Positions 17,646-23,250 of a stretch of DNA of 64,000 nt are shown one piece after another (position 1 is the stretch's first letter; every line of letters begins with the position of its first letter). Location: NCBI GenBank assembly GCA_011089965.1, contig JAANAU010000001.1, positions 248,001 through 312,000 of the forward strand, given 5' to 3'. The position numbers and the translations under genes are program-made. The notes beneath the pieces were generated by a model. The model saw only the letters and a list, made by a program, of their open reading frames with translations. It ran no database searches and was not told where the DNA came from. The stretch is from Magnetococcales bacterium (GTDB lineage Bacteria; Pseudomonadota; Magnetococcia; Magnetococcales; Magnetaquicoccaceae).

Positions 17646-18314
17646 ATGGCTGCCGGTTCCCGACCCGGCTTGACCTTGGAACAGGCGTGTGCTGCGTCCG
17701 GTTTCACCACCATTTGCGGGGTGGACGAAGCTGGACGCGGCCCGTTGTGCGGCCCGGTGGTGGCTGCGGCAGTGGTTTTTCCGACCCATGGCCAACTCTC
17801 CAGGGAACTGGACGGGATAGACGACTCCAAACGGCTGACCCCGGCAGAACGAACCCGATTGGCAGACCGGATCCGGCATCATGCCCTGGCCACAGGCCTT
17901 GGCTTGGCCAAGGCACAAGAGATCGACCAGCTCAATATTCGTCGTGCCACACTCTTGGCCATGACACGCGCCATTTCCGCCTTGCAGCACACCTCCGACG
18001 CATCCCCCCTGGCTCCGGATTATCTGTTGATCGATGGCCGTGATCAACCCGAAGATCTCCACTGCCCGGCAAAAACGGTGATCAGAGGTGATCAGATCTC
18101 GCTCTCCATTGCGGCAGCCTCCATCCTCGCCAAGACCCATCGGGATACCCTCATGGCGCAGTTGGCCATACGTTATCCAGGGTATGGCTGGGAACGCAAT
18201 GCCGGCTACCCTACCGCCGAACATCTCCGGTCACTGCAAACCCTGGGCATCACCCCGGAACATCGGCGCAGCTATGGACCTGTGGCCCGTTTGTCGACAA
18301 AAGGGGAATCATAA
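17646..18314 (+). CDS. rnhB: ribonuclease HII
   Basis: RNase HII cuts the RNA strand of RNA-DNA hybrids and single ribonucleotides in DNA. The active-site block GVDEAGRGPLCGPVVAAAVV supplies the Asp-Glu pair; DDSKRLTPAERTRLAD and SIAAASILAKTHRD carry the others. It is the last gene of the operon; the stop is followed by the stem-loop region at 18323-18639. Confidence 0.96.
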   Translation: MAAGSRPGLTLEQACAASGFTTICGVDEAGRGPLCGPVVAAAVVFPTHGQLSRELDGIDDSKRLTPAERTRLADRIRHHALATGLGLAKAQEIDQLNIRRATLLAMTRAISALQHTSDASPLAPDYLLIDGRDQPEDLHCPAKTVIRGDQISLSIAAASILAKTHRDTLMAQLAIRYPGYGWERNAGYPTAEHLRSLQTLGITPEHRRSYGPVARLSTKGES

Positions 18315-18432
18315 AATTCAAGACCAAGGGCCGACTCTCCTGATTCCTGCTCAGGCATCGCACCCTTGGCCTGAGACGTGGCAAAGCCTACGTCCCATCC
18401 CGCAATTCACTGGATCTACGATCAGGAGAGTA

Positions 18433-18639
18433 ACCAGGAGTCCGATTTGAGGGGGGGGAGATCGGACTCCTGGTGAGGGGTGTGGTGAGACCACACCCCT
18501 ATCTGCATATATAAATACCAAGGGCCGACTTGAGGGGGGGGAGGCCGAACCCTTGGTAAGGGACACAATGCGTCCCATCTCAGAATCATAAGGAATGATC
18601 AAGGGTTGGATTAGGGGGAGGAGTTCCAACCCTTGATCA
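18433..18639 (-). ncRNA. candidate anti-Shine-Dalgarno stem-loop RNA array
   Basis: Four stem-loops stand in a row. Loop 1: 14-bp perfect stem 18433-18446/18461-18474 with a 14-base loop. Loop 2: 11-bp stem 18476-18486/18490-18500 with a three-base loop. Loop 3: stem 18517-18529/18544-18557 with the same 14-base loop as loop 1. Loop 4: 15-bp perfect stem 18596-18610/18625-18639 with a 14-base loop. Read on the minus strand, the large loops are CTCCCCCCCCTCAA (twice) and ACTCCTCCCCCTAA, complementary to Shine-Dalgarno sequences. The inner stem of loop 3 forms G-U pairs only in minus-strand RNA; the plus strand would have A-C mismatches. I therefore assign the minus strand. Confidence 0.6.
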
Positions 18640-18746
18640 AGACCATGCTCAACACATGGCCAATACTGCCGGACTGCAATAAAACTGATTGTGCACGATC
18701 ACTTGGTCTGACATCCGTGTCTCGTGCTCTCTCCTTGTTGCCATTC

Positions 18747-18776
18747 TATATATCAAGATGCGCGCCAATTTGTTAA
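18747..18776 (-). promoter_or_regulatory. candidate promoter upstream of the stem-loop array
   Basis: On the minus strand TTAACA (18776-18771) and TATATA (18752-18747) are 18 bases apart, a fair sigma-70 pair. Transcription would start near 18740 and run into the stem-loops about 100 bases later. The A/T-rich setting makes chance matches easy. Confidence 0.3.
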
Positions 18777-19021
18777 AAAAAATTTTATATTAAAAATCAA
18801 ATAAATAAAGAATGAGACTCACTCTCGTTCTCAACCAGGGGTGAAAAATTTTATGCGGTTTGGAGCAACCATGAGAAAAATATACCGCACTGCAACATAT
18901 CAAAATCAATCCATAACAGTTAGTTAAGATACGGTGACAAATTTTTTTACACTTTTGGATCCCGTAAAAAAATCCTCCACCCTGGTTTCCACCCAAAGCC
19001 GCGAATGGAGAACGACCAGGT

Positions 19022-20449
19022 TCAAAATGCCGAGGAGCCTTTTTTCAACTGTTGCAGGCGATAATTAAGCGTCTGACGGGAGATGCCGAGCAGAGTGGCT
19101 GCCAGACTCTTGTTACCCTGGGAACGTTCCAGTGCCTCTTCAATCAGCAACGTTTCGGTTTCACGCAGTGTGGGCAACTTGCCTGTGAGACGCTTGAAGG
19201 GATTTTCCGGCCAGGCAACGGCCAACGGATCTTCGACCACACTGTTGCTCAGGATGGTCTCCCGGAACCGCTCCAGAGAGAGCAATCCAGAGTGATGCCG
19301 CGCTACGGCATCAAACACAATGGCCCGCAACTCACGAACATTGCCAGGAAAATCATAGGTATTCAACAAATGAAACAACTCCGGAGGCGGTACGGGCGGA
19401 GATTTGCCCATGGCCTGAGCCGCTTCCTCGATAAACTGCGTGGTCAAAACGAGCAGATCCTCCTTGCGCTCACGCAACGGCGGGATCCGCACCTGATGGG
19501 ATGAAAGCCGGAAATAGAGATCCGAGCGGAAACTCTTTTCAGCCATCATCTCCTTCAAATCGCGATTGGTCGCACAAATGATCCGGGCATCGGTCTTCAT
19601 GTAGCCATCCGATCCCAAGGGATAATATTTGCGCTCCTGCAACAGCCGCAACAACTTGACCTGGGAAGACTCCTTGAGATCGCCAATCTCATCGAGAAAC
19701 AAGGATCCACCCGCGGCTGCGGCGATCATCCCTTCCCGATTGTCATTGGCCCCGGTGAACGCCCCTTTGCGATGGCCAAACAGGGTGTCGGAAAACATGT
19801 TGTCATCCAGACCCGCAACATTCAAAGCCACCAGCGGCCCCTGACGATGGCTCACCTGATGGATGGCCTGGGCCAACAACTCCTTGCCCACACCGGTTTC
19901 ACCGATGATCAATACCGGCTCCGAAGAGGGGGCAATGGCCTCGACATACTGAAATACGGCCCGCATCTTGCGACTTTGGGTCAGAATGGCCGCAAAGGCA
20001 GCGGCATCCTGCAAGGAGTCCTCCAGAAGATAGTGTTTCAAAGTCCCCAGTTCCCGTTGCAGGGAACGTACCTCCATGGCGCGCTTGATGCTGGAGATGA
20101 AACGGCTGTTCTCAGCCGGTTTCACCAGGTAGTCGAAGGCACCATCCTTCATGCACTGCACGGCGATCTCCACCTCCTGATTGGCAGTCATGACGATCAC
20201 CGGGATTTCCGGATACCGCTCCTTGACCTTGGGCAGCAGTTCATTGCCCGAGGCAAACGGCATCACCAGATCCAGCACCACCACCGCTGCCCCATGCTCT
20301 TCCAGAAACGGCAACAATTGACGGCCATCGGTCAAGGTGACCACTGGCGATACATCTGCGGTCTTCAACAGGATCTTGGAACTGAACAGTACCGTCTCTT
20401 CGTCATCCACCAATACAATCGGCAAGCTCTTTTTGACCGGTTCACTCAT
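19022..20449 (-). CDS. NtrC-family sigma-54 response regulator
   Basis: The protein has an N-terminal receiver (residues 10-125; phospho-acceptor Asp in VVVLDLVMPFASG, Lys in YLVKPA). An AAA+ sigma-54 activation domain follows (about 155-390), with Walker A GETGVGKE, the sigma-54 contact loop GAFTGA intact, and LFLDEIGDL. The C-terminal Fis-type helix-turn-helix is NKSLAATLLGISRQTLNYRL. It should activate sigma-54 promoters when phosphorylated by the kinase encoded just upstream, whose stop overlaps its ATG by four bases. No clear -24/-12 promoter is visible nearby, so its targets are unknown. Confidence 0.93.
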   Translation of the reverse strand: MSEPVKKSLPIVLVDDEETVLFSSKILLKTADVSPVVTLTDGRQLLPFLEEHGAAVVVLDLVMPFASGNELLPKVKERYPEIPVIVMTANQEVEIAVQCMKDGAFDYLVKPAENSRFISSIKRAMEVRSLQRELGTLKHYLLEDSLQDAAAFAAILTQSRKMRAVFQYVEAIAPSSEPVLIIGETGVGKELLAQAIHQVSHRQGPLVALNVAGLDDNMFSDTLFGHRKGAFTGANDNREGMIAAAAGGSLFLDEIGDLKESSQVKLLRLLQERKYYPLGSDGYMKTDARIICATNRDLKEMMAEKSFRSDLYFRLSSHQVRIPPLRERKEDLLVLTTQFIEEAAQAMGKSPPVPPPELFHLLNTYDFPGNVRELRAIVFDAVARHHSGLLSLERFRETILSNSVVEDPLAVAWPENPFKRLTGKLPTLRETETLLIEEALERSQGNKSLAATLLGISRQTLNYRLQQLKKGSSAF

Positions 20450-23250
20450 CCGACATCTCCGCGCAAGGTGTCCACGTACAGGGGCAGACGCACGGTCACG
20501 GTCGTCCCGCGATCCGGCTGGGAATCAAAACTCAAGGTTCCGGCATGATTTTCAATGATGGTGCGCGTGATCGAAAGACCCAACCCCATGCCACCGGATT
20601 CACTCTTGGTGGAAAAGAAGGGATCGGTCAACTTGCTCAGATGCTCGGGCGGAATGCCACACCCCTGATCACGGATGATCACCTGAAGATGGGTGTGGTC
20701 CGATTCGCCCAAAACCGCAATATCCACCCGCTGGCAACGGTTATCCAGGGCATGCAAGGCATTCTGAATGATATTGATGAACGCCTGTTCCAACTGTTGG
20801 GCATTGCCCCGGATCATCAACGGTGTTGGTGCCGGGGTAAAAATGCAGTGATCGGTCGCTGCCCGGATCTGACTTTGCAGAATCAACATGGCAGATTGAA
20901 TCGGATCATGGATCATGACCTTATGGGCCAGAAGCCTCTTGTCCTGACGGGCCATCTGTTTCAATCCGGCAATGATGGTCTGAATGCGTTGCGAACTCAT
21001 GCGGATCCCATCCAAAAGACGGGGAACCACTTCCATGGCCTCATCCAAGGCCATGCCACCCAGATAAAAGGCCCCGGAACGCTCATGAGCATGCTGCAAA
21101 ATGGGGCGCGCATCTCCCCAGATCGCAGCCAGAATCGGTACGTTGAACTGAATGGCGTTATTGGGATTATTGACCTCGTGAGCCACACTGGCCGACAGAA
21201 CTCCCAAAGAAGCCAAGCGGGCATTACGCAAATTCTGGGCCTGAAGGGTGTGTTTTTCCGTGACATCCCGACAGACTGCCAACACTTCCGAGACTTTGCC
21301 ATCATGAAAAATCGGTGCCAGACGGGCCTCCCACCAGGCGGAATCCCCATCGGTAAACGGAAACTCCACGGCCTGTCCGGTCACAAACACCTCATCCAAC
21401 CGCTCTCGCAACGCAGACAAACGCGCTCCCGGAAAAAGATATGCCGGAAATTGCGGCAACAATCGGTTGCAATATTGCACGGCTCCATTCCGATCCAAGG
21501 TCATCAACAAATCAGGGGAGTGATGAAAGAGCGTGCGCAGTTTCTCCTCCGAGATCTGCATGGCCCGTTGGGCGCGCCGCCGCTCTTCGGCCTCACGAAA
21601 CTTGAGAATCCCAAAAGCCAGATTGTTCGCCAGATTCTCCAACAACTGGATCTCTTCGGAATCAAAGGAGTCCGAGGCGCTGCTGTAGATGTTCAACGTA
21701 CCCAAAGGCAACAGATCATCCACCGGCAACGGCAAGGCCAAAGATGAAACATAACCGCGTCGGCTGGCCTCGCGACGCCAGGGGGCAAAATTGGGATCGG
21801 ATTGGATCTCCCGCGCCAAAATCGGTTTGCCGGTACGAAAGGCCGTACCCGTGGGTCCGCGTCCTTTTTCCGTGTCGTCCCAGGTAATCTCCAAAGTATC
21901 CAGATAATCGTCATCAAAGCCGTATTGGGCTGCCGGAACAATGCGGCCATCGACTGCGGCAAAACCGACCCAGGCCATACGATAGCCACCCTGTTCCACA
22001 ATCAGACGACAGATCCGTTTGAGCAGTTCCTGTTCGGAAGTGGCCTTGATCATGGTTTCGTTGCCATGACTCAGGGTCAGCAGTGTACGGTTGGCGCGTC
22101 GAATCGCCCGTTCTGCCAGTTTGCGCGGTCGAATATCCCGGGCAAAATGGCAATGGATCGTGTCCCCATCCATGGAGAGCAGCGTGGTCTGAACCTCCAG
22201 ATGCAAGATGGCCCCGCTCTTGGTGCGCACGGCAGTCTCCATGCAGCGGATGCGGCTCTTTTCCAGATCGTCGCAATGATCCTCCCAGAGGTCCGAGGAC
22301 CAGTCGACATGTACATCCACGACGGTCATGGTCAACAGCTCTTCACGGCTGTATTCCACAGCCTGACACATCGCCTCGTTGACATAAATGAAGCGACCGC
22401 CCGGCTCCACCCAGCAGATCATGTCTGCCGCATGATCCACACTGAACTGGGTCCGTTTCAACAGGTGATCGGTCTCTTTGTGGACCTGCAAGGCATTTTC
22501 AAACAGCGCCAATGCCTGATTGATGAATCGGGCCAACAGTCCCAACTCATCTTCGTGGTGTTTCGATGGTACGGCAATCGGCTGCCGGGCCGGTTCTGCC
22601 GGATCCACACTGGCCAACTGTCGCCCGATCAGCAGAATGGGACGGGTCAGCAGCCGATGAAAGGTGATGGTCAGAATCGATGCCAGCAGAAATGCCTGCA
22701 ACAAACTGCTCAACAGGGTAAACCCGGCGCGCAGCATGAAATCCTCGGCACTCACATAGGCATCGACCGCAATGGTCAACTCACCTGCTGGTTGATCGTT
22801 GAAGGTCAACGGAATGGTGATCGTGAAATCTTCGTCCAACAGTCGGGAAGCCACCCAACGGGTCATGCCGGTCGAAGGTCGGGTCCGTTTTTTATCGTGA
22901 AACGGCATACCAGTCGGGGTGCGCAAATGAGCCTGATGCACACCCTGACACTGGAACAGACCGGACAACACCTTTTCCGCCTGCACCGAATCCTGATGAT
23001 GAGTGGCCTGCGCAGCCGATTCACGAATAATTCCAAGCATTTGCGTAATGTTTGCACGAATGCGCTGACGTTCGCGGTAAAGATCGAAAGTCACCTCCGC
23101 CATCCCCAACAGCACTCCCATGCACAGACCCAACAACACCGCAGTGCGGGCCTGACGATAAGAGAGACGATGACGCATCGGCAAACGCATGGGCGGTACG
23201 GCGATCCTGTGTGTCATGAATCTGTGAGTCCCCTCCCCCTTGGCAACCAT
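20446..23250 (-). CDS. membrane sensor histidine kinase (PAS-GAF-PAS)
   Basis: Two membrane segments (about residues 37-57 and 180-200) flank a periplasmic domain of about 120 residues, then a HAMP-like stretch. A PAS domain (about 275-395) and a GAF domain (about 400-560, with GRGPTGTAFRTGKPILAREI) follow, then a second PAS (about 575-690). The kinase core has the H-box SVAHEVNNPNNAI and an ATPase domain with NIIQNALHALD, DQGCGIP and GGMGLGLSI. It is paired with the overlapping regulator gene. A later ATG at 23217 has the stronger GGGGGAGGGG upstream and may be the true start. Confidence 0.92.
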   Translation of the reverse strand: MVAKGEGTHRFMTHRIAVPPMRLPMRHRLSYRQARTAVLLGLCMGVLLGMAEVTFDLYRERQRIRANITQMLGIIRESAAQATHHQDSVQAEKVLSGLFQCQGVHQAHLRTPTGMPFHDKKRTRPSTGMTRWVASRLLDEDFTITIPLTFNDQPAGELTIAVDAYVSAEDFMLRAGFTLLSSLLQAFLLASILTITFHRLLTRPILLIGRQLASVDPAEPARQPIAVPSKHHEDELGLLARFINQALALFENALQVHKETDHLLKRTQFSVDHAADMICWVEPGGRFIYVNEAMCQAVEYSREELLTMTVVDVHVDWSSDLWEDHCDDLEKSRIRCMETAVRTKSGAILHLEVQTTLLSMDGDTIHCHFARDIRPRKLAERAIRRANRTLLTLSHGNETMIKATSEQELLKRICRLIVEQGGYRMAWVGFAAVDGRIVPAAQYGFDDDYLDTLEITWDDTEKGRGPTGTAFRTGKPILAREIQSDPNFAPWRREASRRGYVSSLALPLPVDDLLPLGTLNIYSSASDSFDSEEIQLLENLANNLAFGILKFREAEERRRAQRAMQISEEKLRTLFHHSPDLLMTLDRNGAVQYCNRLLPQFPAYLFPGARLSALRERLDEVFVTGQAVEFPFTDGDSAWWEARLAPIFHDGKVSEVLAVCRDVTEKHTLQAQNLRNARLASLGVLSASVAHEVNNPNNAIQFNVPILAAIWGDARPILQHAHERSGAFYLGGMALDEAMEVVPRLLDGIRMSSQRIQTIIAGLKQMARQDKRLLAHKVMIHDPIQSAMLILQSQIRAATDHCIFTPAPTPLMIRGNAQQLEQAFINIIQNALHALDNRCQRVDIAVLGESDHTHLQVIIRDQGCGIPPEHLSKLTDPFFSTKSESGGMGLGLSITRTIIENHAGTLSFDSQPDRGTTVTVRLPLYVDTLRGDVG

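What the first reader, a model, noticed from the sequence alone, without database searches (positions are those of the whole stretch)
18323..18639. Array of stem-loops displaying anti-Shine-Dalgarno loops: candidate new small RNA
Three large hairpins have unrelated stems (14, about 13 and 15 bp) but loops of exactly 14 bases that are alike: CTCCCCCCCCTCAA twice and ACTCCTCCCCCTAA once, read on the minus strand. Conserved loops on covarying stems are the mark of a functional RNA. The loops are complementary to Shine-Dalgarno sites, as in the cuckoo/CcsR-type small RNAs described in alphaproteobacteria. Strand evidence: the inner stem of hairpin 3 pairs by G-U only in minus-strand RNA and has A-C mismatches on the plus strand. 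A short 11-bp hairpin separates two units, and a candidate promoter lies at 18747-18776. This is the most unusual element in the window.
Basis: partly seen in the sequence, partly recalled or inferred. Interest (0 to 1): 0.82.

Follow-up and report, generated by a model that had tools for sequence, protein, structure and literature searches.

The report
Kinase-linked small RNA with C-rich loops
Beside a two-component regulator, these bacteria (Magnetococcales) carry a previously uncatalogued small RNA whose repeated hairpins keep C-rich loops while their stems change, probably to bind G-rich sites on messenger RNAs and turn genes down; the longest versions occur in a family that seems to have lost the usual RNA helper protein Hfq.

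Summary
The window (a Magnetococcales genome) carries, on the minus strand, three large hairpins with C-rich loops plus a fourth, degenerate one. The array recurs in 22 genomes of four families of the order. Loops stay C-rich (C6-10, usually ending UC) while stems change completely between genera, with compensatory changes; G-U against A-C counts put the RNA on the minus strand. In f1, f8 and f12 the array lies behind the same histidine kinase/NtrC-like regulator pair (two f1 genomes differ). No Rfam family matches, cuckoo and 6C included. Most likely: kinase, regulator and sigma54 drive an RNA of about 420 nt whose loops pair with G-rich ribosome-binding sites, as in sX13 and B11, in a layout like cbrA-cbrB-crcZ. 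Expression, targets and regulation are untested. Unexpected: Hfq was not found in any of 18 genomes of this family but in 28 of 30 other Magnetococcales; the longest arrays are in the Hfq-less family. The leader carries a hairpin matching the CsrA consensus.

The parts
18747..18767 (-). sigma54-type -24/-12 promoter TGGCGCGCATCTTGATATATA (GG-N10-GA); expected start near 18741
   Evidence: same kind of site before the array in all 22 loci; pattern found in 19 of 48 genomes, reversed control in 1; rpoN present
18838..18855 (-). conserved AT-rich block CATAAAATTTTTCACCCC (relatives: AAAATTTTGCACCTCC), candidate regulator (enhancer) site
   Evidence: alignment; similar blocks in g14 and g9
18933..18951 (-). 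second conserved upstream block GTGTAAAAAAATTTGTCAC (relatives GTAAAAAAAATCGCCACC)
   Evidence: alignment
18710..18721 (-). leader hairpin GACA-CGGA-TGTC, match to the CsrA consensus ACANGGAUGU
   Evidence: GGA present at this place in all nine g1 genomes, stem covaries (G008 GAACTA/TGGTTC), closing A-U lost in G002; CsrA gene present
18642..18662 (-). conserved small hairpin GGCCATG...CATGGTC before the first C-loop unit
18596..18639 (-). C-loop hairpin H3 (first transcribed), 15 bp, loop ACTCCTCCCCCTAA
18560..18576 (-). spacer hairpin GGGACGC...GTGTCCC
18516..18558 (-). C-loop hairpin H2, bulged stem, loop CTCCCCCCCCTCAA
18476..18500 (-). spacer hairpin, 11 bp, loop CTC; relatives keep it with G-U and compensatory changes
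18433..18474 (-). C-loop hairpin H1, 14 bp, loop CTCCCCCCCCTCAA
18372..18397 (-). spacer hairpin TGGGACGTAG...CCACGTCTCA
18321..18371 (-). fourth unit H0, loop degenerate here, C-rich in G004, G005 and G010
19022..20449 (-). NtrC-like response regulator (receiver, sigma54 AAA+, Fis HTH), likely activator
   Evidence: Pfam; 83-90% identical in genus
20446..23250 (-). PAS/GAF sensor histidine kinase
   Evidence: Pfam

Best explanation
It is a stand-alone small RNA of about 420 nt, a new RNA family of the Magnetococcales. A sensor kinase signals to its NtrC-like regulator, which activates a sigma54-type promoter just behind its own gene; the RNA displays several hairpins whose C6-10(UC) loops pair with G-rich tracts at ribosome-binding sites and repress translation or destabilise those mRNAs without Hfq. 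Repeated units raise the dose of loops per transcript. The 5' CsrA-type hairpin may link it to CsrA (stability, or light titration). Shown by sequence: conserved structure, strand, conserved C-rich loops, promoter motif, linkage to the kinase/regulator. Inferred: transcription, activation by this regulator, base pairing with mRNAs, CsrA binding.
For: Array in nine of eleven genomes of the genus plus three of g2, three of g9, one of g13 and six of g14. Kinase-regulator-promoter-array order kept in three families (f1, f8, f12) although stems are unrelated and array length and the gene beyond differ. 9 of 10 stem pairs change on both sides while 100% of cells stay paired; slid controls 24-59% (selected hairpins). 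G-U 64 vs A-C 24 over all stems; 21 vs 0 in the seven g2 C-loop stems. GG-N10-G(A/C/G) ahead of every array. In g14 the last C-loop hairpin is followed by a T run, an intrinsic terminator, just as the C-rich terminator loop of mycobacterial B11 does the targeting (PMC12395582). sX13 of Xanthomonas shows that C-rich loops can repress mRNAs with G-rich start regions, Hfq-independently (PMC3771888). No Hfq found in 18 of 18 genomes of this family.
Against: No expression data. The -12 element is GA (once GG) in g1, g9, g13 and g14 loci instead of the canonical GC, which only g2 has. In g14, and apparently in G008, the array is not next to the regulator; in G004 about 3.8 kb lie between. GAGGGGG-N3-10-ATG sites exceed the reversed control (69 vs 25 in this genome) but as much in genomes where no array was found (G007 118 vs 19), so the target test is uninformative.
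Confidence: 0.62

Rival explanations
1. The array is a sponge rather than an mRNA repressor: its C tracts titrate a C-tract-binding protein (for example a KH/S1 protein, or Rho) or a G-rich small RNA, in the way CrcZ titrates Hfq/Crc.
For: Multiple copies of one motif in one transcript and the kinase-regulator-sigma54-sRNA layout are those of cbrA-cbrB-crcZ (PMC8871633). Copy number varies freely (1-6), as expected of titration.
Against: C-loops presented on stable stems are the known format of mRNA-pairing sRNAs (sX13, 6C/B11); no candidate binding protein was tested; Hfq, the CrcZ target, was not found here.
Confidence: 0.22
2. The RNA is a CsrB/RsmZ-type sponge of CsrA, on the minus strand through its leader, or on the plus strand where the loops read GGGGGAG and contain GGA.
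For: The leader hairpin matches the core of the SELEX consensus RUACARGGAUGU (PMC7652899) in most g1 genomes, with GGA kept in all nine; CsrA is present; all plus-strand loops hold GGA.
Against: Only one clear site per minus-strand transcript in g1, none obvious in g9 or g14. Plus strand contradicted by the G-U bias, folding energy, promoter and direction. CANGGATG is common by chance (29 in the window).
Confidence: 0.08
3. A DNA-level repeat (REP-like, terminator cluster or mobile element) between two genes, with no RNA function.
For: Tandem hairpins at the 3' end of rnhB.
Against: Only one locus in the genome, no dispersal, conserved promoter and linkage over several families, strand-specific G-U pairs, no terminator-like site in the window region.
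Confidence: 0.03
4. A member of the cuckoo/CcsR anti-Shine-Dalgarno family.
For: C-rich loops, several units in tandem.
Against: No Rfam hit; no DUF1127 gene adjacent; sigma54-type promoter; loop core C6-10(UC).
Confidence: 0.03

Closest known systems
sX13 sRNA (Xanthomonas)
   Same: Several stable hairpins with C-rich loops in one sRNA; Hfq-independent; loops act on G-rich motifs near translation starts (PMC3771888)
   Different: Three fixed loops with 4-5 C in 115 nt; different neighbours; Gammaproteobacteria; no sequence match found
6C RNA / mycobacterial B11
   Same: C-rich hairpin loops; targeting by a C-rich loop, in B11 that of the terminator (PMC12395582), as the g14 anatomy suggests
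   Different: Actinobacteria, two C-rich loops (PMC6582537); Rfam search gave no 6C match at E<=5 in the window region or E<=0.5 in relatives
CrcZ with CbrA/CbrB (Pseudomonas)
   Same: Kinase gene, sigma54-activating regulator gene, then a sigma54-dependent sRNA as its own transcription unit (PMC8871633)
   Different: CrcZ binds Hfq/Crc; here C-rich loops and, in family f1, no Hfq found
Cuckoo/CcsR RNAs (Alphaproteobacteria)
   Same: Tandem units with C-rich, anti-SD-like loops
   Different: RpoHI/RpoHII promoter and DUF1127 gene (PMC10253847); neither seen here

Membership tests
cuckoo/CcsR RNA | match to a curated Rfam model of such RNAs | tested here: not met
   no hit at gathering; E<=5 gives only chance hits incl. 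ar7 13.2 bits vs cutoff 60
cuckoo/CcsR RNA | association with a DUF1127 gene | tested here: not met
   flanking genes are RNase HII and the regulator; the rest of the genome was not searched for DUF1127
cuckoo/CcsR RNA | CCUCC anti-SD core in loops | tested here: inconclusive
   CCUCC/CUCC in most g1 loops; g2 loops are ACCCCCCCCTCTA
6C RNA (RF01066) | match to the Rfam model | tested here: not met
6C RNA (RF01066) | hairpin loops with six or more C | tested here: met
sigma54-dependent sRNA beside its regulator (CrcZ type) | sRNA directly behind a kinase and sigma54-activator gene pair | tested here: met
   f1, f8, f12; not in g14 or, apparently, G008
sigma54-dependent sRNA beside its regulator (CrcZ type) | -24 GG / -12 GC promoter | tested here: inconclusive
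   GG-N10-GC in g2; GG-N10-GA or GG elsewhere
sigma54-dependent sRNA beside its regulator (CrcZ type) | transcription requires rpoN and the regulator | not testable with these tools
   needs cultured cells or a reporter
CsrA sponge (CsrB/RsmZ type) | many GGA-loop hairpins in the transcript | tested here: not met
   one leader site in g1; C-loops have no GGA on the transcribed strand

The most novel reading that the evidence does not exclude
In a bacterial family that has lost Hfq, a sigma54-controlled multi-loop RNA has expanded into a chaperone-free global regulator (or titrates a C-tract-binding protein that took over part of Hfq's role), with CsrA as its partner through a conserved 5' hairpin.
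Probability: 0.15. Interest if true: 0.8.

Novelty: new variant of a known kind. Interest (0 to 1): 0.62.

Why it matters
The searchable papers hold no regulatory RNA for the Magnetococcales. This one joins two known designs: a kinase/sigma54-activator-linked sRNA (CrcZ logic) and C-rich-loop targeting (6C/sX13 logic). Because loops stay and stems are replaced, it is a clear case of a loop-constrained RNA family that plain sequence search misses. Its variable loop number beside a clean apparent loss of Hfq makes the question of how sRNAs work without Hfq testable by comparing sister families.

Tried and rejected
Rfam at gathering and relaxed thresholds: no family. Plus-strand reading: rejected by folding energy, G-U bias, promoter and synteny. 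REP/dispersed repeat: only one locus in the genome. Phylum scan with the hairpin model (299 genomes): the only hits outside the order were one each in G065 and G213; the G065 hit lies in a different tandem repeat, G213 was fetched but not examined. Because the first look caps the candidates scored, absence elsewhere is weak evidence. Regulator relatives in Geobacteraceae and others (about 50-59% identity): no C-loop array behind them. Target enrichment by GAGGGGG before ATG: uninformative. First MAFFT alignments of hairpins across genera misplaced the unrelated stems, so the model was built from a gap-free set. The papers on 6C in M. tuberculosis and on the cuckoo family were not held.

Full report
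WHAT IS THERE. The window lies in a Magnetococcales genome (G000; the closest named records for the neighbouring regulator are Magnetococcales MAGs). Between rnhB (17646-18314, plus strand; RNase HII by Pfam) and an NtrC-like response regulator (19022-20449, minus; receiver, sigma54 AAA+ and Fis HTH domains), itself preceded by a PAS/GAF histidine kinase (20446-23250, minus), lies about 700 nt of non-coding DNA. Its rnhB-proximal half holds the hairpin array. Folded as RNA the minus strand reaches -175.8 kcal/mol, z -8.0, against -154.8, z -4.7, for the plus strand.

UNIT PLAN. Read on the minus strand: sigma54-type promoter (18767-18747), leader with a small GGA hairpin (18721-18710), a hairpin GGCCATG/CATGGTC, then C-loop hairpin H3, spacer hairpin, H2, spacer hairpin, H1, spacer hairpin, and a fourth unit H0 whose loop is degenerate here but C-rich in G004, G005 and G010. 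Within the window the stems are diverged copies, not unrelated sequences.

COMPARISON. A DNA search found the array in eight further genomes of the genus, between rnhB and the same kinase/regulator pair in most of them. In G004 about 3.8 kb separate it from the regulator, and in G008 the regulator contig ends about 70 nt behind the regulator gene while the array lies on another contig. The two genus members without it (57% and 76% complete) lack a close regulator match too, so absence there may be incompleteness. In the sister genus g2 (G013, G014, G017) a related regulator is followed by a canonical GG-N10-GC site and three or four hairpins with loops such as ACCCCCCCCTCTA on quite different stems, away from rnhB. 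The same order of parts occurs in family f8 (G041, G037, G024) and f12 (G028), again with other stems. In family f13 (six genomes) the RNA stands apart from the regulator but keeps the promoter and the upstream AATTTTGCAC block, and ends in a C-loop hairpin followed by a T run, an intrinsic terminator. The promoter pattern matched in 19 of 48 genomes, not all of these hits being arrays, while the reversed control pattern hit one. That makes 22 genomes; all have GG-N10-G[A/C/G] in front (G037).

STRUCTURE AND STRAND. In nine gap-free hairpins from seven genomes, all 90 pair cells are standard pairs, and 9 of 10 pairs change on both sides; sliding the partner by one column drops pairing to 56-59%. 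These hairpins were chosen for the model, so this shows compensation, not discovery. Over all stems of eleven loci, counted with G-U and A-C tolerated alike, G-U pairs outnumber A-C 64 to 24; several of the A-C cases are loop-edge C...A. In the seven g2 C-loop stems the ratio is 21 to 0. The RNA is therefore the minus strand of the window. In 1.26 Mb of unrelated background, C6+ loops on stems of 11 bp or more occurred three times.

REGULATION. rpoN is present. The -24 GG and the first G of the -12 element are invariant in all loci; the base after it is A in most, C in g2, G in G028. In this genome the intergenic TGGCACG-N4-YTGMW sites include two with GC and one with GA, so GA is unusual but not excluded. 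Conserved AT-rich blocks 70-200 nt upstream are plausible sites for the regulator. That this regulator drives the RNA is inferred from linkage.

MECHANISM. C-rich loops on stable stems acting on G-rich start regions are established for sX13 (PMC3771888; Hfq-independent) and B11 (PMC12395582; terminator loop). I consider the same here most likely (0.62). A sponge of a protein or RNA, the logic of CrcZ (PMC8871633), is the main rival (0.22). My test for targets, GAGGGGG 3-10 nt before ATG, exceeds its control about threefold here but as much in genomes without a detected array, so it says nothing.

HFQ AND CSRA. Hfq (PF17209) was not found in any of the 18 genomes of family f1 but in 28 of the other 30 Magnetococcales, the two misses being incomplete genomes. 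Arrays have 2-6 C-loops in f1, three or more as a rule, and 1-2 in the Hfq-bearing families. This is a correlation from what looks like one loss event. CsrA is present, and the leader hairpin of g1 matches the core of the SELEX consensus RUACARGGAUGU with GGA in the loop (PMC7652899); G028 also has CACAAGGATGTC after its promoter. The 8-mer alone is common by chance; the conserved place and covarying stem are what make it notable.

KNOWN OR NEW. No Rfam family matches in the window or in relatives, and the searchable papers hold nothing on Magnetococcales sRNAs. It works like sX13/6C and is wired like CrcZ; it is not a tested member of the cuckoo, 6C or CsrB families. I rate it a new variant of a known kind.

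LIMITS. MAGs, no expression data, a candidate cap in the genome searches, and rough E-values for the short hairpin model.

Noticed in passing
whole genomes, family f1 (G000-G017): Hfq not found in all 18 genomes of this Magnetococcales family but in 28 of 30 other genomes of the order: apparent lineage-specific loss.
   Followed up: partly
18710-18721: Leader hairpin matching the CsrA SELEX consensus, conserved in g1; similar motif in G028 (f12).
   Followed up: partly
18770-19021: Conserved AT-rich blocks (AAAATTTTGCACC, GTAAAAAAAATNNCCACC) upstream of the promoter, shared in part with g14 and g9; candidate binding sites of the regulator and a handle on its regulon.
   Followed up: no
L011:650-4440: In G004 about 3.8 kb separate regulator and array; a weak histidine-kinase-like match lies in between.
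   Followed up: no
L012:6760-6900 (G009): The rnhB-proximal units of G009 are replaced by two different large hairpins (CCAAAGGTCGGCACC...) without C-rich loops.
   Followed up: no
L039:31-120: Group II intron match near the start of the G014 contig.
   Followed up: no
L250: The G065 hit of the hairpin model lies in a tandem repeat (CTCCCCC/GCCAGGGGGAGG) in a different family of the phylum, unrelated to the array.
   Followed up: no
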